A stretch of DNA of 64,000 nt from Clostridiales bacterium (lineage in GTDB: Bacteria > Bacillota > Clostridia > Lachnospirales > Lachnospiraceae): contig JAJQAC010000087.1 of NCBI GenBank assembly GCA_021204025.1, forward strand, positions 1 to 64,000. Reading direction: 5' to 3'. Shown here piece after piece: positions 50,674 through 60,765 of this stretch. The notes under the pieces are model-generated. The model was not told the DNA's origin and ran no database searches. It saw nothing but the letters and a program-made list of their open reading frames with translations. Both the position numbers and the translations under genes were made by a program. Within the stretch, counting starts at the first letter, position 1. Each line of letters opens with the position of its first letter.

Positions 50674-52179
50674 TTACTCACGCAAGGTACTAAGCGCATC
50701 TTCCACGGTCATTCCACCGGCTATCGCTTTTTTGCGCTCCGCATTTATCTTCTGTATCTGCTTCATACGTTCCCCACTTAAACTATAATGTTTCATAGCC
50801 CACAACGTTGCCAGCCATGCGGTCATAGGCAAAACACAAAACAACAGGATCACGAGGGTTTTCATTCCCGGCATATATGGCGTATTACTGTCCGGAAGCG
50901 TTGTTAATCCCACCGCAGCTACCGAAACTCCTACAATCGTAGCACTTAAAGATGAAATCAATTTATCAACCAGAAAAAACAACGTGCCAATAATACCTGG
51001 CATATAATTGCTGGTTCGATAGGTTTCATAATCCGAACAATCGGCTGTCATAGGAATAACCATATCCGCTGTACTATAATACGAACCATATCCGACACAA
51101 TAAAACAACACAAACAAGATTGTATACAGATTTATATTTCTCAATGACAGCGAAGTATGCGGATTTCCCGGCTCCCACAAAAGCAACAGAATGAATACCC
51201 CTATGTAAAGTACAAAAGCAAGTTTTGTAAACCGCACAAGGGAGGCTTTTTGACCCTTTTTTTGTGAAGTTCTGGCATTTAAAACGAAAAACGGAGCACT
51301 TGCCGCATAACCTATCACATATAGAGGTAAAAACAAACCGTTGTAATCTCCCATCATAGACGCATATAACATACAGGCTACGGAAGTATTAGTCGCTACT
51401 GCAAAGCCCAGCTTAGTGCCTGCCCCTGCAATCACCAGCATCTGTAACTCATGATTCCCTTTTAAAATGGAAATGCATTGTCTTAAATTTACTTTTGCAG
51501 CATCATTTCCTCCAATACCATAATTTTCCGGGCAGTCCTTTTCCCAGATTCCGACAATCGCAAACAACGTCAGAACAAAAGATAGTATGATCGCAATTGG
51601 AATCACGATATCAAAAAAGTGGGTATTTCCATATCCAATACGCCCTCCGACAATAACAGCTATCGCCTGGAACAACCCCATTCCCAACAGAGATGCAACT
51701 GTATTAAAAATAGTAAACAACGGTCTCTGTTTTGGATCATTTGTAATGCAGGTTTGTCCGGAACGGGTACAGGCCGTCTGAAAGGTGTACCCAATCACAT
51801 AAAGCATATAGATAAGGATAAATGATACATATCGCAGCCAAATCATCCCCTCAGGAATTCCTCTGGTTACAAAATAAAGTAAAACAGCACTAACCGCCAT
51901 GATTACATTTCCCAGAAGCATATACGGGCGAAATTTCCCATATTTTCCTGAAGTTTTATCTATAATCATACCGATTACAGGATCTGTAACCGCATCAAAC
52001 ACACGCATCAGTGTCACCATGCTGGTAGCAAATACAAGCATCAGGCCAAGGACACCATTTGCATAGTAAGCGATATAATTCGCGGTTAAAACAAAATAAA
52101 CATTTGTAGCGCCATTATTAAAAGAGAATAATAACAATTGCCATGATTTTGTATGATTAACCGAACAATTTTCTTCCAT
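50674..52179 (-). CDS. GPH-family sugar:cation symporter
   Basis: A 501-residue MFS-related glycoside-pentoside-hexuronide symporter with about 12 helices, beginning SWQLLLFSFNNGATNVYFVL. DAVTDPVIGMIIDKTSGKYGKFRPYML is the family's cation-binding helix and loop, and FYCVGYGSYYSTADMVIPMTADCSDYETYRT the second conserved block. UidB/MelB-like; the sugar is not decidable. It is the last gene of the six-gene operon, 12 bp after the GH2 gene, so it probably imports the disaccharide or glycoside that GH2 hydrolyses. AAGGAGGA precedes the start. Confidence 0.88.
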   Translation of the reverse strand: MEENCSVNHTKSWQLLLFSFNNGATNVYFVLTANYIAYYANGVLGLMLVFATSMVTLMRVFDAVTDPVIGMIIDKTSGKYGKFRPYMLLGNVIMAVSAVLLYFVTRGIPEGMIWLRYVSFILIYMLYVIGYTFQTACTRSGQTCITNDPKQRPLFTIFNTVASLLGMGLFQAIAVIVGGRIGYGNTHFFDIVIPIAIILSFVLTLFAIVGIWEKDCPENYGIGGNDAAKVNLRQCISILKGNHELQMLVIAGAGTKLGFAVATNTSVACMLYASMMGDYNGLFLPLYVIGYAASAPFFVLNARTSQKKGQKASLVRFTKLAFVLYIGVFILLLLWEPGNPHTSLSLRNINLYTILFVLFYCVGYGSYYSTADMVIPMTADCSDYETYRTSNYMPGIIGTLFFLVDKLISSLSATIVGVSVAAVGLTTLPDSNTPYMPGMKTLVILLFCVLPMTAWLATLWAMKHYSLSGERMKQIQKINAERKKAIAGGMTVEDALSTLRE

Positions 52180-52191
52180 ACATCTTCCTCC

Positions 52192-54117
52192 TTAAACCCA
52201 GTTTTTACTTTCTTTTTGCCTGTGCTTTGACAGTCTGTAAGAATGATCCGGAGCGTTTGTTTTCCTAATGTAAGAACTGTCTCTGCAGTTTCCTGCAACA
52301 GCCTCAAAATTATTCTCCCGATCTAATACTACCGAAAAAACAAAAACATGCTCTCCCCTGCAGATTTCAAGAAGCTGACCATTCTGATAAAGACTGACCT
52401 CCGGTTGATTGGAATAAACCCGAAGCTTAATTTTCGATTCTGTTCGATTTACATAACGTTTTCCGCAAATATGAACAAAAGGTTCTTCACTCCACCATGC
52501 TTTATAAAGATAGAAACTATCCTTTTTGATTTTCCTGTCAAACGTCACAACCCCCTTATGATTCATGCCAGGTTCACCTCCCTGATCCCTGGCGTCCGCC
52601 GCAAAATCGAACATATTCCAGAGATATGTTGCCCACAAAAATGGATGTCTCTGAAAGCATTTCAGCATATACTCATGATAAAGAGCCTGATATTCTTCTG
52701 AATGATCTCCCCGTCTGGGTCTTGATGAATGCAAATTTGGCATTCCTTCCGCCCCGTATTCCGAATAGCCAAGACAACGTTTCGGCCAGAATCTATGAAA
52801 TATATCCATAAAAAGATCGTTTAAGAAAAGTCCCGGCACATACCATCCCAGATAGAGATTATAGGACACTAAGTCCGAAACTTTATGTACCACAGGATCA
52901 AAAGGCATGCATACCGCATAACACGCCAGCGTAGTTAATCGGGTGGGATCTATCTGATGACATAAATCATTTAAAACCCTGTGGTTTTTCATCATATCTT
53001 TACGATTTCTTGTCGATATGGTAATCTCATTGGATATTCCCCAGCAGATTATGGAAGGATGATTATAATTCTGAACAATTAATTCTCTCATCTGTGCAAG
53101 AGTATTTTCATAACCTTCCGGCATATGCTCCGATATATATGGAATTTCCGTCCAGACAATCATCCCGTATTCATCACATAGATCATAGAAATACTGATCA
53201 TGCTGGTAATGGGCCAATCGTATTGTATTTGCACCCATTTCCAGGATCAACTCCATATCCTGTTTTAAATTCTCTTTCGTAACTGCATTTCCAATTCCTT
53301 TCCTGTCCTGATGTTTGGAAACGCCATGCAGCGGATAACTTACTCCATTTAAAAAGAATCCTTTATCTGGATCTACATAAAAATCTCGTATACCAAAACG
53401 ACAGCTCACCCGGTCTGTTATCTCGCTGCCCTTTTTTAGTTCTGCTATCGCTGTATAAAGGTATGGATCCCGCCGTCCATTCCAAAAATGAGGATTTTCT
53501 AACACAATCGTTACATTTACTCCCGTTCCTTTTCCTACCACCAATCCATTTTCTTCAAGGATTTTTATTTCTACTTCCCCATCTCCGCTTACAAATGTTT
53601 CTATCTGTATCGTTGCGCAACTTCCCTGTATCGTCGGTGTCACTTTGATACCATTTGCACCATTGTAATCTAATTCAAAATGATCGGAATCCACAACCAG
53701 TAAATTAACATCCCGATATATACCCCCATAAAATGTAAAATCTGCTTTCTGTGGATAAACCCGGCGATTGATACCATTATCCACCTCTACTTCAAGAATA
53801 TTTTTTTCTTCCAGAACGTTTGTGATATCTGCCCGAAAAGTGGAATATCCCCCTTCGTGGAAACACACTTCTTTCCGGTTAATCATAACTCTCGCACTTG
53901 AACTGACACCATGAAATTCCAGATACAGGCGATTCTTCCTGGTAAAATTTTCGGGCATACAGAATTCTTTTTTATACCTTCCTACACCCCGTAAATAATT
54001 ATTATTGCCATCCTGTCCATCCTTGTTATTCCATGTATGGGGGAGATTAACAATTTCACAAAAACCTTTCGGATCCACAAATTCCCAATCAAAATTCAGA
54101 TTAATATATTTTCTCAT
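52192..54117 (-). CDS. Glycoside hydrolase family 2 (beta-galactosidase / beta-glucuronidase type)
   Basis: A roughly 641-residue GH2 enzyme. The start at 54117 (MRKYINLNFDWEFVDPKG) has TTGAGGAAG upstream. N-terminal sugar-binding and immunoglobulin-like domains come first (residues ~1-270), then a TIM barrel. The acid/base Glu is in HPSIICWGISNEI and the nucleophile Glu in LGYSEYGAEG. GMNHKGVVTFDRK has the N-x-K seen in glucuronidases, but related beta-galactosidases share N-x-KG, so the substrate is left open. No signal peptide; cytosolic. Between kinase and symporter genes in the operon. Confidence 0.85.
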   Translation of the reverse strand: MRKYINLNFDWEFVDPKGFCEIVNLPHTWNNKDGQDGNNNYLRGVGRYKKEFCMPENFTRKNRLYLEFHGVSSSARVMINRKEVCFHEGGYSTFRADITNVLEEKNILEVEVDNGINRRVYPQKADFTFYGGIYRDVNLLVVDSDHFELDYNGANGIKVTPTIQGSCATIQIETFVSGDGEVEIKILEENGLVVGKGTGVNVTIVLENPHFWNGRRDPYLYTAIAELKKGSEITDRVSCRFGIRDFYVDPDKGFFLNGVSYPLHGVSKHQDRKGIGNAVTKENLKQDMELILEMGANTIRLAHYQHDQYFYDLCDEYGMIVWTEIPYISEHMPEGYENTLAQMRELIVQNYNHPSIICWGISNEITISTRNRKDMMKNHRVLNDLCHQIDPTRLTTLACYAVCMPFDPVVHKVSDLVSYNLYLGWYVPGLFLNDLFMDIFHRFWPKRCLGYSEYGAEGMPNLHSSRPRRGDHSEEYQALYHEYMLKCFQRHPFLWATYLWNMFDFAADARDQGGEPGMNHKGVVTFDRKIKKDSFYLYKAWWSEEPFVHICGKRYVNRTESKIKLRVYSNQPEVSLYQNGQLLEICRGEHVFVFSVVLDRENNFEAVAGNCRDSSYIRKTNAPDHSYRLSKHRQKESKNWV

Positions 54118-54145
54118 TGTCTTCCTCAAATTTATATCAAAAAAC

Positions 54146-55438
54146 TTATTCATTCTCTTGTGGCAATGGTATCGCTATTTTTAAATCAAAACATTGATTC
54201 CGCACAGATATATCCAGATATCCTTCGTATTTTTTGACATTATGCTGTATGCTTTTCAGACCATATCCATGATAACCTTTGTGTATCTTCGTCGTTTCCG
54301 GGAATTCATCTTTCATATTTAATTTTCCATAAAGCGGGTTTGTAATATTGATAACCAGAAAATTATTTCTCGTATAAATAGAAATATCAATAAAGCGTTT
54401 TTCCGGTTCATCAAAATTGCGAACTGCTTCTATTGCATTATCCACAGCATTACCCAGTATCGCGTACAAATCCATTGGGTTAATGAAAACAAGACTTCTC
54501 CCATCCGCAACACAGTTGATCCGTATTTCATTGGCGTTGCAATACAGGCTTTTCTCTGTAAGTATCGTATCCAGAACCTCATTTCCTGTTTTAACGATAG
54601 ACTCGTAAATTTTTATTGACGATTCAATTTCAGTCAAATACTCTTCTCTCGACTTCGTATCGCTAATTTCCCGGATTGCGGCGATCTGATGTTTTAAATC
54701 ATGACATTTTTGGTTAATCAAATCAATATTTTCCCTTGTTAAGTCATACTGTACTTTCTGATTCTGTCTCAGCAGATTTAAAGTCAGAAGTTCCTTTTCT
54801 ATCTCCCCTTTTTTGAAAAGTTCCGTTAAAAGGTACAGCATCGTGACACAATAACACTGAACCAATGCGATGGACAACCATAAATGCTTCTCGTCCGCCC
54901 GGATAACGGATGTCAGTATAAAATAATACAACACCTCAAACACAATCCACAAACCGACAGCCAGACTCAGTTGCCGGGGACCGATCTGATAATGACCATC
55001 CACGGGCATGATCTTTGCCACTGTGAAATGTAAGACAACGCAACAAAACAGGTAAACAGCAATCATTAACAATTCCTGCTTTCCTTCAAATATCCCATCA
55101 ATTGGATAAATGCTTATAATGATTTTCCAAATGCCGGAAAAAAATTTTGCCGTAATCATCGACCAGATCGCCACATAAAGAGCATCTGACTTTCTACACT
55201 TTGCACACGCAAAAACCATCACCGAAACTGCCAGAAGCTGAAGAATCATTTTTAAAAATCCACAAGGGAATTTGAGCGAGATCATTTTTTCCAGTATAAG
55301 GCACGCAACAACCGCTCCCACAGAGGCAAAAATTCCCGGCCATACAGAATTCCTGTGTTCTAATGGATATAAATATACCATTCCAGCTGCCATAATAAAA
55401 AGGACAATGATCAAATGATTAAAATCGCCCTCTATCAT
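54146..55438 (-). CDS. GHKL sensor histidine kinase (AgrC-like)
   Basis: About 430 residues: six or so membrane helices (first ~200 residues), then a dimerisation segment with NQKCHDLKHQIAAIREI carrying the phospho-His, and a GHKL ATPase domain with ILGNAVDNAIEAVRNF (N box) and HGYGLKSIQHNV (G box). This is the class that phosphorylates LytTR response regulators. The start at 55438 is an ATG one base after the preceding regulator's stop, with GGAGG upstream; the track's GTG at 55450 is too close to that site. No agrB/agrD peptide genes are seen, so the ligand may be a glycan or unknown peptide. Confidence 0.88.
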   Translation of the reverse strand: MIEGDFNHLIIVLFIMAAGMVYLYPLEHRNSVWPGIFASVGAVVACLILEKMISLKFPCGFLKMILQLLAVSVMVFACAKCRKSDALYVAIWSMITAKFFSGIWKIIISIYPIDGIFEGKQELLMIAVYLFCCVVLHFTVAKIMPVDGHYQIGPRQLSLAVGLWIVFEVLYYFILTSVIRADEKHLWLSIALVQCYCVTMLYLLTELFKKGEIEKELLTLNLLRQNQKVQYDLTRENIDLINQKCHDLKHQIAAIREISDTKSREEYLTEIESSIKIYESIVKTGNEVLDTILTEKSLYCNANEIRINCVADGRSLVFINPMDLYAILGNAVDNAIEAVRNFDEPEKRFIDISIYTRNNFLVINITNPLYGKLNMKDEFPETTKIHKGYHGYGLKSIQHNVKKYEGYLDISVRNQCFDLKIAIPLPQENE

Positions 55439-55439
55439 A

Positions 55440-56144
55440 TTACAGACCACCTCCGATATAACCCATTAAAGCTTTGATAAAAGCAGATTTATTGCGCCGA
55501 CTTATTTCAAGTCTTTCAGATCCTACCATAACAGTATTTTGTCTGACACCAGAAACATATTTCAAATTAATCAGATACCAGTAATTACATCTGGCAAAGT
55601 GATAATCGTTCAGAATACGTTCTGCTTCCTGCAAAGCTCCATAAACTGTATAAGTTCCCCTGATTGTATGATAATGAAGACGTTTTCCGTTTGATTCTAT
55701 ATAATAAATATCATCAGAATCAATCACCTGCTCTCCCACTTTGGCGGACAAAGTCAGTTTGACTGATCGTTTTTGTTTCAGTCTCTCAATCACTCTGGCT
55801 AGACGCAGGGCAAACTCATAATAATTTATGGGCTTTAGCACAAAGTCGAGCGCTCCTACAGAATACCCGTCTATCGCATATTGAGCCAGATTTGTGACAA
55901 AAACAATCGACACATATTCATCCTTCTTCCGTAAATATCTGGCAGCATCCATTCCATTCATCCCAGGCATCTCAATATCCAGAAAAATAATATCAAACGA
56001 CGACCTGCTCTCGGAAAAGGTAATTCCATCCTCGTAATTTTTTATTTCAAATACAATCCCATGTTCTTCCCCATACTGAATCAAATAATGCTCAATCTGT
56101 TTCTGAAATTCTATCTGATCTTCAACCACAGCAATCCTGTACAT
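55440..56144 (-). CDS. LytTR-family response regulator (canonical receiver)
   Basis: A 234-residue DNA-binding regulator. Receiver: acidic VVEDQ at the start, phospho-acceptor Asp in DIIFLDIEMPGMNG near residue 57, Thr in IVFVTNLAQYAIDGY, Lys in FVLKPINYYE. The C-terminal LytTR domain has IYYIESNGKRLHYHTIRG and the HFARCNYWYLINLKYVSG end region. It is cotranscribed with the kinase (1-bp gap) and with a second LytTR gene. Expected to bind 9-bp direct repeats 12 bp apart, which are present upstream of the GH3 gene. Confidence 0.9.
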   Translation of the reverse strand: MYRIAVVEDQIEFQKQIEHYLIQYGEEHGIVFEIKNYEDGITFSESRSSFDIIFLDIEMPGMNGMDAARYLRKKDEYVSIVFVTNLAQYAIDGYSVGALDFVLKPINYYEFALRLARVIERLKQKRSVKLTLSAKVGEQVIDSDDIYYIESNGKRLHYHTIRGTYTVYGALQEAERILNDYHFARCNYWYLINLKYVSGVRQNTVMVGSERLEISRRNKSAFIKALMGYIGGGL

Positions 56145-56145
56145 A

Positions 56146-56850
56146 CTAAGCCCCTGTATAGTTTTTATATTCCTCCATCAATTCTTTTTTCCTCGCCCTG
56201 GAAACCGGAAGCCTGTTTTCACCAATTTCAACATAATCTGATCCTAATGCTGTAACATACTCTAAATTCACCAGGCACGAACGGTTGCAAATTTGAAACT
56301 GTTCACCCATAAACTGGTTTACCGCATTGCAAAACTGTCCTCGTATTTGAAAATTTCCCTCACGGGTATGATAAACCAGAGCATGATTCAACACTTCTAC
56401 AAAAAGCACCTCATTGATAGAAATAACTTCTACTCCTTTCGCAGTTTTGAGAATCAGCTTTTTCTTTTTACGACTGCTCCATTGTCTTACTATTTTCTGT
56501 AAAGCCCGTTCTAATTCTATTTTTTTCACCGGTTTACGTATAAAATCCGAGATATCCAGTTCATAACCTTGTACCGCATACTGCACCATGGATGTGACAA
56601 ATACCAGCATCAGATCCTTACTACGGCCACGGATACGTCTGGCCATTTCCAATCCATCTGTCTTTTTCAGATTAATTTCAAAGAAAAGCACATCAAACTT
56701 ATCACTTTCTCTTTCAAACTGTCCTTCATCCAAATATGTCTGAATTTTACACTCCAATTTCCGCTCCGCAAAAAATCTTGCGATTTCTCTTTTCAATGAC
56801 GAGAGCTGGGATTTATCATCATCCATGATTGCAATATGTATCATATTCAT
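56146..56850 (-). CDS. LytTR-family response regulator with Asp-to-Glu change in the receiver
   Basis: A 234-residue relative of the neighbouring regulator. The acidic pocket IAIMDDDKSQ, Thr (VFVTSMVQYAVQGYE) and Lys (FIRKPVKK) of a receiver are present. At the phospho-acceptor position, however, DVLFFEINLKKTDG has Glu where the partner has Asp (DIIFLDIEMPG). A Glu here often mimics the phosphorylated state or removes kinase control. The LytTR domain (EVLFVEVLNHALVYHTREG, ICNRSCLVNLEYV) looks intact. AAAAGGA precedes ATG 56850, 19 bp after the GH3 stop. Confidence 0.88.
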   Translation of the reverse strand: MNMIHIAIMDDDKSQLSSLKREIARFFAERKLECKIQTYLDEGQFERESDKFDVLFFEINLKKTDGLEMARRIRGRSKDLMLVFVTSMVQYAVQGYELDISDFIRKPVKKIELERALQKIVRQWSSRKKKKLILKTAKGVEVISINEVLFVEVLNHALVYHTREGNFQIRGQFCNAVNQFMGEQFQICNRSCLVNLEYVTALGSDYVEIGENRLPVSRARKKELMEEYKNYTGA

Positions 56851-56869: not shown

Positions 56870-59800
56870 TTACTCGACTTCTATTCTCTTTTTTCGCTGA
56901 ATCATGTCAAACACCATCAATAAAACAGCAACTATAGTAAGTCCCCCGAAAACAGCCGTTACAGCATTAAGAGCTGTCTGCCACCATGGTGTAACAGTGA
57001 CGATCCTGCTTCCAGAAGCAATACCATCCATACCTCTGGAATGAACTACCGTATATAACACTCTGTGGGCACTTTCACGCATAGCCCACGCCATAGTAGC
57101 TGACTCTTTTTTCCCTCCAGGAGCATAAGGAACAAATTCTGATAATAAAATATCTTCTGTTACATCTGACAAATCTGCTCCGGTTTCCACACGTCCCGGA
57201 TAACCATCTGGCAAATCATTCCCTGCCAAAACTTCATGAGGCACCGACATGTAAGTAACAGCGTATTTGCCCTGCATATCTGTCACAGCAAATCCCGACA
57301 TACCAGCTTCTCCTCTGAGCCATTCTGTTATCAGCGCGTAACTACCACCTGACCAAAAAGCGCCTAAACGGTTAAACGAAGTCATAACGCATTTAGCGTC
57401 TGCATATAAAATCGGCAATTCAAATGCCCTTAAATATATTTCACGCATTGCCTGCTCGGTAGCCCAGGTTCCGATTCCACGACGGTTATTTTCCTGGTCG
57501 TTCATCACAAAATGTTTATTGTAAACATACACACCTTTGGACTGGATTCCCGCGGTCTCGCTTGCCACCATCAGCCCTGAAAGAATCGGATCTTCAGAAT
57601 AATACTCAAAGACCCTGCCGCCATAAGGAGTACGGTGAATGTTAAGACCAGTCCCATATATTCCCGAATATCCGGCCCACATGGCGTCCTCTCCAAATAA
57701 CTCACCAGCCTCTTTAATCAACAGATCATTCCAAGTTGCAGCCATAATTCCATTACAAGGAAACTGCGTTCCCGTTAAACTCTTATCTGGATCATCCGTA
57801 ATCGTCGCATAGCCATTCTGACCATTTCCATATGCCTGAGTCACGCCCGTAGAACCATTATGATCCAGTGTCTCCGGCTTTCCAATTTCTTCAATTCCTA
57901 CTGTCATACGCATACCAATTGAGACAATCTTAGTAAGTTGATCATAAGTAAGCTGATCCAAAAGGCTATCCCATAACGGATCCTCAAACGGAATTTCATT
58001 ACCATTTTCATCAACTCTCAGATCAATCAGCTGGAGTGCGGTATTTGTGGATCCCATAGTTGGGAATTCCATTCCTTCCGGATCAGCAGGAATATCGTCA
58101 TCATCCAACACAAGATCTTTTGCGATCTGATCGGTCATGGCAAGTCTTACATAATCATCACTAACCTTATCTCCATCCTCGTCTTTCCACAGACTCAAAG
58201 TTCCTTCCCAGTCATTTCTGCTACAGTAAGTAATTGTATTCTCTCCGCGACCTTCATAACGGTTCATATCCACAAAATCGAAACGTGCAGTTACTTCATT
58301 TCCAGTTCCCATCGCCATTCGATAAGTTTCCGTATCAAAAGCGTAGTCTATGTCAAATACCATCTGGGCATTTCCCTCGGCTGTCATTCCATCCGCCATT
58401 GTCTTTCCCTTTTTTGCCAGAATATTATTAACGGCATTATGGGCGTTCTCAGCAACCGTAAGATAATGAGTCCCTTCGCTCAATATATAGGTTCCCGCTC
58501 CATAAGCATCAAACGAGGTAAAATAATATTCCGGAATACTGATTGTCAGCTTCTGGTACTCACCTGGCTTCAGAGTATCTGTCTTTGCATAGCCAACCAG
58601 TTCAACTGAAGGCTTCTCTATCTGATTTTCCACATCATAGCTGGTATACGGTTTCTGCAAGTAAATCTCTACAGCTTCTTTTCCTTCCGCTTCACCAATA
58701 TTGGTCACCGTAACCGTTGCCTCATAGGTTGTTTCTCTTCCCTGCCCACCTTTTTCTACTGTAAAATCGGAATATTCAAAATTTGTATAACTCAAACCAT
58801 ATCCAAAAGGATAAGCTACCACTTCTTCATACTGATAATCTCCTGTATTCGGCGTACCAAGTATCTTATCCTCATACCGTGTTTCCGTATACCGATAACC
58901 GACATATACGCCTTCCTGATAGACTACATAGTTAATAAACCGTTCCGGATCTGCAAAAGTATACTGATCTGCATTCTCATAAACATATGATCCAAAATTT
59001 GCTATCGCCGGATTTAATCGATTATCCATCCAAAAAGTATCCGAGAGTTTTCCAGATGGAGTCGCATTCCCTTTGAGCAAATCAGCTACAGCATACAATC
59101 CGGTCTGACCCACCGCACCAATCCACAATGCAGCGTCAACACCATATTCATCATCATTGATGAACGCACAAGATAACGGATTGGGTGAATTGATCAATAC
59201 CACAATAGCTGAAAAACGACCCTCATCTTTCAATTCTTTCAAGCCCTTTAATATCGATAATTCCTCCGTATTTAAAGTAAGATAATCTCCATTAAGTCCA
59301 TCGGACTGATTTGCTACTTCATGATCTCCGCCCTCGCCGGCATTGCGGCCGATAATAAAAAGCGCTGCTTCTCCTGTTCCAAGACCAGACCCACAATTCT
59401 TTTCTATTTCCGACCACGGCGCCTCTCCGATCGAAATCGGGAAGCCGGTAACAGTATTACCTTCACCTATGGTTCTTCCGTAACCGCTGTTCGAGTACCA
59501 ATCATATAATTCATTGTTTATTGTAAACCCGACATTCTCAAGCGCTGTTTTATAGTCCGGCACATCATCCGATTCAATACCGGCAGATCCGGTTCCGCCG
59601 TAAAGCGGATCCGTCGATGCCGCACCAAACAGACTCAATTTTGTATCTTTCATTGGCAACACATCGTTGTCATTTTTCAGCAGCACCGCTCCTTCTTCTT
59701 CCACTCTTCGTACAATATCATATCCGGCTGCCTTTAATTCAGCAATATTCTCATATTCCGACTCATAATATCGAATAAATTCTGATGTATCCTCATGATT

Positions 59801-59956
59801 ATCATTGACAATCTCATAGGTTTTGACACCCAACGCCGAATTTACAGCAACGCTGTTTTCCGTAGCAATTGTTGTTGCCGTTACAAATACCGCAAGCCCA
59901 GCTGCCGTAATGTTTAAAAATATCTTTTTTAATGTCGTTTTACTTTTCCGCGCCAT
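56870..59956 (-). CDS. Membrane-anchored glycoside hydrolase family 3, inverted domain order
   Basis: A 1028-residue GH3 enzyme with a hydrophobic N-terminal segment (residues ~10-30) and a C-terminal membrane helix (ALNAVTAVFGGLTIVAVLLMVF) before KKRIEVE. The usual C-terminal GH3 sandwich comes first (EEGAVLLKNDNDVLPM), then a fibronectin-III-like part (GYAKTDTLKPGEYQKL), then the TIM barrel with WNDLLIKEAGELFGEDAMWAG and the nucleophile segment GFAVTDMQGKYA. This inverted order is known for some rumen beta-glucosidases. First gene of the operon, AGGAGG start, AT-rich. Probably acts outside the membrane on beta-linked oligosaccharides. Confidence 0.88.
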   Translation of the reverse strand: MARKSKTTLKKIFLNITAAGLAVFVTATTIATENSVAVNSALGVKTYEIVNDNHEDTSEFIRYYESEYENIAELKAAGYDIVRRVEEEGAVLLKNDNDVLPMKDTKLSLFGAASTDPLYGGTGSAGIESDDVPDYKTALENVGFTINNELYDWYSNSGYGRTIGEGNTVTGFPISIGEAPWSEIEKNCGSGLGTGEAALFIIGRNAGEGGDHEVANQSDGLNGDYLTLNTEELSILKGLKELKDEGRFSAIVVLINSPNPLSCAFINDDEYGVDAALWIGAVGQTGLYAVADLLKGNATPSGKLSDTFWMDNRLNPAIANFGSYVYENADQYTFADPERFINYVVYQEGVYVGYRYTETRYEDKILGTPNTGDYQYEEVVAYPFGYGLSYTNFEYSDFTVEKGGQGRETTYEATVTVTNIGEAEGKEAVEIYLQKPYTSYDVENQIEKPSVELVGYAKTDTLKPGEYQKLTISIPEYYFTSFDAYGAGTYILSEGTHYLTVAENAHNAVNNILAKKGKTMADGMTAEGNAQMVFDIDYAFDTETYRMAMGTGNEVTARFDFVDMNRYEGRGENTITYCSRNDWEGTLSLWKDEDGDKVSDDYVRLAMTDQIAKDLVLDDDDIPADPEGMEFPTMGSTNTALQLIDLRVDENGNEIPFEDPLWDSLLDQLTYDQLTKIVSIGMRMTVGIEEIGKPETLDHNGSTGVTQAYGNGQNGYATITDDPDKSLTGTQFPCNGIMAATWNDLLIKEAGELFGEDAMWAGYSGIYGTGLNIHRTPYGGRVFEYYSEDPILSGLMVASETAGIQSKGVYVYNKHFVMNDQENNRRGIGTWATEQAMREIYLRAFELPILYADAKCVMTSFNRLGAFWSGGSYALITEWLRGEAGMSGFAVTDMQGKYAVTYMSVPHEVLAGNDLPDGYPGRVETGADLSDVTEDILLSEFVPYAPGGKKESATMAWAMRESAHRVLYTVVHSRGMDGIASGSRIVTVTPWWQTALNAVTAVFGGLTIVAVLLMVFDMIQRKKRIEVE

Positions 59957-60119
59957 TTTTTCCTCCTAATATTTATCCCATAACTTTCTTCTTCCATCCT
60001 CGTAATATATAATCAATCGAAAGATCTGACAAAATGAGGTGAAAGATCCTGTTTCCATAATTGACAGATGTGTAATGAACTTCATCTTAAGACTATTGTA
60101 GCTGATAATGCGGAATCAG

Positions 60120-60147: not shown

Positions 60148-60173
60148 TCGTCATTTCATCTGTCGATAATGGA

Positions 60174-60202
60174 ATTATAGCCAACTTTTTAAGAGAAATC
60201 CA
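60174..60202 (-). promoter_or_regulatory. Activator-type promoter of the glycan operon
   Basis: On the minus strand a perfect TATAAT follows TGGATT (poor -35) after 17 bp. The weak -35 fits dependence on an activator bound at the LytTR repeats immediately upstream. Confidence 0.65.
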
Positions 60203-60213
60203 CAATTATGTAA

Positions 60214-60243
60214 CAAGTGGTCATTTTTCAAGCGCAAATGGTC
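60214..60243 (-). promoter_or_regulatory. Candidate LytTR binding site: two 9-bp direct repeats 12 bp apart
   Basis: On the plus strand CAAGTGGTC and CAAATGGTC are separated by exactly 12 bp, a 21-bp period. This is the layout bound by AgrA/LytTR regulators. The site is 11 bp upstream of the -35 of the operon that encodes two LytTR proteins. Confidence 0.6.
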
Positions 60244-60375
60244 GTTCTATTTTATTGACAAATTTACCATAAAATGAAATAATAATATCAATTCTTTTGA
60301 CATTAGTACTAAATCGGTATAATGCGGTAATGTCTCCGAGAAGCGCGTATATCAATTATTTCCAAGGAGGTTTTT

Positions 60376-60765
60376 ATGCTTTCAAATATTTTTTCTGACA
60401 AAAAAATCGGATTTTATCTGTCCGGTCTTGCAGCAATACTTTCTCTCGTTACTGCAATTATCTATCAATTGACTTACTATAACAACGCTGATTATTCTTC
60501 TTCTGTTTTTGCAATACTGCTTATTGCCTTTCCTGCAGCTCTGATTCTGACTTTGCTCAGATTAGAAGCCTTTGTACCTGCAATTGTTACTCTCATAATC
60601 GGCATTGGCGCCTTAAGATTTATTTACGCCATGTATCTGGAAATGTCTGTCGTTTTGGTCGGCATCGATAAATCAGCTTTCGATCCGCAATTTATCGTTT
60701 GCAGCGTTCTAATGATATTAGGATTCATAATGGGAGAGATTTCCATTTATACTCCGGTCAAATAA
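60376..60765 (+). CDS. Small four-helix membrane protein, unknown function
   Basis: A 129-residue hydrophobic protein with about four membrane helices (FYLSGLAAILSLVTAIIYQL, VFAILLIAFPAALILTLL, VTLIIGIGALRFIYAMYL, VCSVLMILGFIMGEISI). It begins MLSNIFSDKKIGFY, with AAGGAGG upstream. I do not recognise a named family. It is divergent from the GH3 gene, and promoter-like sequences (TTGACA and TATAAT elements) lie in the shared intergenic region. A functional link with the membrane-anchored GH3 is possible but only by position. Confidence 0.75.
   Translation: MLSNIFSDKKIGFYLSGLAAILSLVTAIIYQLTYYNNADYSSSVFAILLIAFPAALILTLLRLEAFVPAIVTLIIGIGALRFIYAMYLEMSVVLVGIDKSAFDPQFIVCSVLMILGFIMGEISIYTPVK

What the first reader, a model, noticed from the sequence alone, without database searches (positions are those of the whole stretch)
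60174..60243. LytTR-type operator and weak -35 in front of the operon that encodes two LytTR regulators
CAAGTGGTC-N12-CAAATGGTC has the exact 9-12-9 layout of AgrA/LytTR sites. It lies 11 bp from a TGGATT -35 with a perfect TATAAT -10 at 17 bp. The operon downstream carries both regulators and their kinase, so autoregulation is the simplest reading.
Basis: partly seen in the sequence, partly recalled or inferred. Interest (0 to 1): 0.72.

Follow-up and report, generated by a model that had tools for sequence, protein, structure and literature searches.

The report
LytTR operator for a glycoside-use operon
The paired 9-letter DNA repeat is very probably the docking site of a LytTR-type response regulator that switches on the sugar-conjugate-digesting operon encoding that same regulator; this is a well-known kind of control, found here in a gut-type bacterium whose operon also carries a second, oddly altered regulator.

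Summary
Read on the minus strand, the strand of the operon, the site is ACCATTTG-N13-ACCACTTG (21-bp period), then 11 bp, TGGATT, 17 bp and TATAAT. The pattern is unique in the window and in the 3.04-Mb genome. The sister operon in Candidatus Ventrimonas merdavium keeps it at exactly the same distance from its TATAAT. The same operator, ACCACTTR-N13-ACCACTTR, sits at fixed distance upstream of a -10 in front of GH2 or GH3 genes in further genomes that carry a regulator like the window's second one (RR2) with its kinase. RR2 shares its DNA-contact motifs with those regulators. RR1 does not, and its receiver carries Glu58 where phospho-Asp is expected (Gln in the sister). RR2 with its GHKL kinase is therefore the likely binder, and positive autoregulation the likely logic. 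The repeat sequence matches published HdrR/BrsR/BtsR-type sites rather than AgrA's (PMC6193735, PMC4847170). It is a new member of a known kind. Unusual parts: the altered partner RR1, and a possible half-RR1, half-RR2 operator. Binding and transcription are untested.

The parts
60235..60243 (-). distal half-site, minus strand GACCATTTG (core ACCATTTG 60242-60235)
   Evidence: aligned in A7/A10
60214..60222 (-). proximal half-site, minus strand GACCACTTG (core ACCACTTG 60221-60214), 21 bp from the first
   Evidence: CCACTT of this half-site invariant in 11 loci
60197..60202 (-). weak -35 TGGATT (3/6), 11 bp after the operator
   Evidence: weak or degenerate -35 at the same columns in 10 relatives
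60174..60179 (-). -10 TATAAT, 17 bp after the -35
   Evidence: -10-like TAnAAT at the same columns in relatives, TGn-extended in several
56870..59956 (-). GH3 glycoside hydrolase, 1028 aa, first gene of the operon; about 210-nt leader
56146..56850 (-). RR1: receiver-LytTR protein with Glu58 instead of phospho-Asp (codon 56679-56677)
55440..56144 (-). RR2: receiver-LytTR response regulator with Asp56 and CNYWYLINL/EISRRNK signature; likely binder of the operator
54146..55450 (-). GHKL (HATPase_c_5) sensor kinase, overlapping RR2 by 11 bp
52192..54153 (-). GH2, nearest model beta-glucuronidase LacZ4 (below its cut-off)
50674..52179 (-). GPH (MFS_2) glycoside symporter
60255..60283 (+). promoter of the divergent gene, TTGACA-17-AATAAT (11/12, TG before the -10)
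   Evidence: same hexamers and spacing in sister L063 (11746-11774), but 38 bp from the operator there against 11 bp here
60376..60765 (+). divergent 129-aa membrane-protein gene (DIV), found beside GH3 in many Clostridia

Best explanation
The repeat is a LytTR-family operator for the GH3-RR1-RR2-HK-GH2-GPH operon. A dimer of phosphorylated RR2 binds the two half-sites on one face of the DNA, 21 bp (two turns) apart, just upstream of a weak -35. There it recruits RNA polymerase to a promoter whose -10 is good but whose -35 is poor. The membrane GHKL kinase encoded next to RR2 senses a signal, probably the substrate glycoside or a product of GH3/GH2. Because RR2 and the kinase are in the operon, induction is positively autoregulated. 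Shown here: the site, its uniqueness, its conservation and fixed phase to the -10, its linkage to RR2-type genes, and the shared DNA-contact signature. Inferred: binding, phosphorylation, activation rather than repression, and the signal.
For: Unique pattern in window and genome. Same layout and identical spacing to TATAAT in the sister operon. ACCACTTR-N13-ACCACTTR (0-2 mismatches) upstream of GH2 or GH3 in genomes with RR2-kinase genes: G015 (L064), G014 (L067, after the kinase, near the contig end), G297 (L068, L178), G249 (L070), G013 (L065), G016 (L180), G041 (L183), G172 (L218). All 11 sites align almost without gaps from the first half-site through the -10; CCACTT of the proximal half-site and the TA of the -10 are invariant. 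A one-base-longer spacer gives no match in the same loci. The window site fits the RR2-type pattern with 1 mismatch and the RR1-type pattern with 3. RR2 shares CN[HY]WYLxNL and LEISRRNK with regulators of RR2-only loci; its nearest curated full-length model is BtsR. Published LytTR autoregulatory sites have the same sequence, 12-bp gap and about 10 bp to the -35, e.g. ACCACTTAC-12-ACCACTTGC (PMC6193735).
Against: No binding or expression data. The distal half-site is imperfect (ACCATTTG; ACAATTCA in the sister). Genome-wide the bare pattern is at about chance frequency in the genus and family, so the case rests on position and linkage. No site was found in the 16-kb RR2 locus of G016 itself (L066); that genome's site is on another contig in front of GH2 (L180). 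ACCACTTA pairs also sit before single-domain LytTR (LRS-like) operons in other genomes (G100, G166), so the motif alone does not name the protein.
Confidence: 0.8

Rival explanations
1. RR1, alone or as a mixed dimer with RR2, is the main protein on the operator. Its Glu58 makes it active without phosphorylation or makes it a modulator.
For: RR1 orthologues in other Clostridia are encoded after the same GH3, and the region between the divergent gene and GH3 there carries CCRTTCACGRCA pairs at 21-bp period. The sister's distal half-site (ACAATTCACGTCA) resembles that motif. Asp-to-Glu is the change used in the LytTR protein YpdB for DNA-binding studies of its active form (YpdB-D53E, PMC4847170).
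Against: The window site fits the RR2 pattern better (1 against 3 mismatches). RR2-only genomes have the operator without RR1. RR1 is only 33% identical between the two sister operons against 56% for RR2 and 66% for GH3, so it is evolving fast.
Confidence: 0.13
2. The site mainly serves the divergent gene's promoter, or both promoters as in the agr P2/P3 region.
For: A near-consensus promoter for the divergent gene starts 11 bp from the repeat, and the divergent pair is conserved in many genomes.
Against: In the sister locus the divergent promoter is 38 bp away instead of 11, while the GH3 side keeps its spacing exactly. RR2-only loci have the site without this divergent neighbour. A TTGACA promoter hardly needs an activator.
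Confidence: 0.1
3. Chance repeat without function.
For: Two short repeats; genome-wide counts of the bare pattern in relatives are near the control.
Against: Conserved position, spacing and phase to the -10 in many genomes.
Confidence: 0.03
4. The third LytTR protein of the genome (contig C66, no receiver domain) binds here.
For: Single-domain LytTR regulators use ACCACTTA-type sites elsewhere.
Against: It lies beside rpsO/pnp-like genes without an LRS membrane partner or such a repeat and is unlinked to the operon.
Confidence: 0.03

Closest known systems
LytTR operators of HdrR/BrsR-type LytTR regulatory systems (LRS; PMC6193735)
   Same: ACCACTTA-like direct repeats, 12-bp gap, about 10 bp before a weak -35, in front of the operon that encodes the regulator
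   Different: Those regulators have no receiver and are controlled by a membrane inhibitor; here there is a receiver-LytTR regulator with a GHKL kinase and a glycoside-use operon
BtsR (YehT) site at yjiY in E. coli (PMC4847170)
   Same: ACCGCTTA-N13-ACCACTCA pair, receiver-LytTR regulator; nearest curated model of RR2 is BtsR
   Different: BtsS is a LytS-type kinase and the target is a transporter gene outside such an operon (general knowledge); here a GHKL kinase and GH/GPH genes
AgrA sites at agr P2/P3 (PMC4227749)
   Same: Direct repeats just upstream of promoters with imperfect core elements; GHKL kinase with LytTR regulator; divergent promoters
   Different: Different repeat sequence; no agrB/agrD genes in the operon
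Gram-positive PULs with RR[LytTR]+HK (e.g. Ros-7, PMC5320581)
   Same: GH genes, transporter and LytTR two-component pair in one locus
   Different: No operator was described in the passages read; two LytTR regulators here, one with an altered phospho-site

Membership tests
LytTR-family operator | Two direct repeats of about 9 bp separated by 11-13 bp | tested here: met
   9-12-9; definition from PMC4847170
LytTR-family operator | Located a few to about 11 bp upstream of the -35 of the target promoter | tested here: met
LytTR-family operator | Conserved in orthologous or analogous promoters at fixed phase to the -10 | tested here: met
LytTR-family operator | Bound by a LytTR protein in vitro or in vivo | not testable with these tools
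   needs gel shift or footprint
AgrA-type site | AgrA repeat sequence (ACAGTTNAG-like, from general knowledge) | tested here: not met
   Sequence is ACCAYTTG; layout only is shared
LRS (LytTR regulator plus membrane inhibitor) | Regulator without receiver, followed by an inhibitor membrane protein | tested here: not met
   RR1 and RR2 both have receiver domains and are followed by a GHKL kinase
Two-component system | Kinase with GHKL ATPase domain next to a receiver regulator with phospho-Asp | tested here: met
   HK has HATPase_c_5; RR2 has Asp56
Two-component system | RR1 carries a phospho-acceptor Asp | tested here: not met
   Glu58 in the window, Gln in the sister; Asp in 13 other RR1-type proteins

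The most novel reading that the evidence does not exclude
The operator is a composite. The distal half-site derives from the RR1 motif (CCRTTYRCG; the window reads CCATTTGCG and the sister CAATTCACG) and the proximal half-site is the RR2 motif (CCACTTR), so a mixed dimer of a phosphorylation-independent LytTR protein (Glu/Gln at the phospho-site) and a phosphorylated one would control the operon. This would be a two-regulator integration device that arose when two LytTR modules merged.
Probability: 0.13. Interest if true: 0.62.

Novelty: new member of a known kind. Interest (0 to 1): 0.36.

Why it matters
It turns a raw-sequence hunch into a well-supported regulator-operator assignment. The ACCACTTR-N13-ACCACTTR plus -10 signature can be used to find targets of RR2-GHKL systems that drive glycoside-use operons in the window's family (Lachnospiraceae, judging by its named relatives), where such regulation is little described. 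The locus also offers a natural case of a LytTR regulator that lost its phospho-acceptor while sitting next to an intact one, useful for asking what altered receivers do.

Tried and rejected
Strict ACCAYTTR scan of GH3 relatives: most distant Clostridia lack that exact sequence; the repeat tool then showed a related 21-bp-period pair (CCRTTCACGRCA) in many of them. An opposite-strand second operator in those loci, guessed by eye, gave no match, so I dropped it. The repeat finder did not report the window site itself, because its two 9-mers differ at one internal base and the exact run is below the settings. A motif-independent period test in Python was lost with the script machine. Genome-wide counts of the bare pattern gave no enrichment over the reversed control. 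Rfam found nothing convincing in the window leader or the L116 intergenic region. Literature searches for LytTR plus glycoside-hydrolase control returned no description of this system; subscription papers are not held.

Full report
Observation. All of it reads on the minus strand: GACCATTTG-CGCTTGAAAAAT-GACCACTTG-TTACATAATTG-TGGATT-N17-TATAAT. The pattern is unique in the window (0 in 100 shuffles), and ACCAYTTR-N13-ACCAYTTR has a single perfect match in the 3.04-Mb genome.

What it stands in front of. Six minus-strand genes with gaps of at most 19 bp or overlaps: GH3 (1028 aa), two receiver-LytTR proteins (RR1, RR2), a GHKL kinase, GH2 (nearest model beta-glucuronidase LacZ4, below its cut-off) and a GPH symporter. 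A terminator scan finds fewer terminator-like sites than shuffles and none in a gap between these genes. The genome has only three LytTR domains: these two and an unlinked receiver-less one.

Conservation, sister operon. Of 24 genomes of the genus only one other (G002; L063 = L093, Candidatus Ventrimonas merdavium) has the whole operon (GH3 66%, RR1 33%, RR2 56%, kinase 53%, GH2 66%, GPH 62%) and the divergent membrane-protein gene (54%). Its intergenic region reads AACAATTCA-N12-AACCACTTA-N11-TAGAAC-N17-TATAAT: same spacing throughout. The divergent promoter (TTGACA-17-AATAAT) is also kept, but 38 bp from the repeat instead of 11. The repeat is thus phased to the GH3 promoter, not to the divergent one.

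Conservation, RR2-only systems. A pattern search over all fetched loci put ACCACTTR-type pairs directly before GH2 or GH3 genes in genomes with an RR2-kinase pair and no RR1 beside it: L064 (G015), L068 and L178 (G297), L070 (G249), L065 (G013), L180 (G016), L183 (G041, 2 mismatches), L067 (G014, right after the kinase near the contig end), and later L218 (G172) with the order RR2-kinase-site-GH2. In L065, L178, L180 and L183 the site is not between the kinase and the GH gene but before a GH gene elsewhere in the locus or genome. Aligned, the 11 sites keep register from the first half-site through the -10 (one 1-base gap, in L218). CCACTT of the proximal half-site is invariant, the -35 is weak, and the -10 is TAnAAT-like, often TGn-extended. 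Lengthening the gap by one base gives no match. Whole-genome counts of the bare pattern are not above the reversed control, so the evidence is positional.

Which regulator. RR2 has Asp56 and the CN[HY]WYLxNL and LEISRRNK segments of regulators in RR2-only loci. RR1 instead shares CNRSxxVNL and a different C-terminal segment with RR1-type proteins. RR1 has Glu58 at the phospho-acceptor position and the sister RR1 has Gln, also losing the conserved Lys; 13 other RR1-type proteins have Asp. The site fits the RR2 pattern with 1 mismatch and the RR1 pattern with 3. In other Clostridia, RR1-type systems lie behind the same GH3, whose upstream region carries CCRTTCACGRCA pairs at 21 bp. The window operon thus looks like two merged modules: GH3-RR1 (kinase lost) and RR2-kinase-GH2-GPH. 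That history is inference.

Mechanism. By analogy with LytTR activators whose repeats lie just upstream of weak -35 elements (AgrA, PMC4227749; HdrR autoregulation shown by EMSA and reporters, PMC6193735), phosphorylated RR2 most likely activates the operon and so its own synthesis. Activation and the inducing glycoside signal are inference.

Relation to the known. Published LRS operators are nearly the same sequence with the same gap and a strong bias for 10 bp to the -35 (e.g. ACCACTTAC-12-ACCACTTGC); BtsR's site is ACCGCTTA-N13-ACCACTCA. Two LRS-like loci seen here (G100, G166) carry the same motif before receiver-less LytTR genes. The finding is therefore a new member of a known operator kind in a less described setting, a Lachnospiraceae-type glycoside operon. 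The open and more interesting part is RR1 and the possibility of a composite half-RR1, half-RR2 operator, strongest in the sister locus and weak in the window (one base).

Noticed in passing
window 56146-56850 (-), codon 58 at 56679-56677; L093 9218-9913: RR1 has Glu at the phospho-acceptor position (Gln in the sister, which also lost the conserved Lys), while 13 related RR1-type proteins have Asp. Natural Asp-to-Glu in a LytTR regulator next to an intact one.
   Followed up: partly
L111, L112, L113, L115, L116, L117, L119, L121, L126, L127, L131, L136, L139, L141, L167, L095, L097, L109 (about 250-550 bp upstream of GH3): A related LytTR-like pair, consensus CCRTTCACGRCA at 21-bp period, upstream of the orthologous GH3 in many Clostridia.
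   Followed up: partly
L116 7490-7660 (-) and aligned loci (A9); GH3 leader L116 7840-8000 (+) (A8): Both divergent leaders in those Clostridia hold strongly conserved, probably structured segments (divergent-gene leader: 95% of cells paired, covariation above all shuffles). No Rfam hit in L116. Possible undescribed leader RNA.
   Followed up: partly
window 60376-60765 (+); DIV matches: A small membrane-protein family without Pfam or NCBIfam match travels with this GH3, divergent in most loci, same strand directly upstream in a few (L102, L103). Probably a functional partner of the GH3.
   Followed up: partly
L152, L153, L154, L159, L160, L161, L162 (about 800-900 bp upstream of GH3): Another 21-bp-period pair, CAGTTACGATGTA-like, upstream of a different GH3 subtype, in most cases beside other RR-kinase pairs; possibly a further LytTR operator class.
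   Followed up: no
window 60053-60070 / 60157-60174: An 18-nt, 89% complementary inverted repeat with arms 86 nt apart lies in the GH3 leader, one arm at the -10/start.
   Followed up: no
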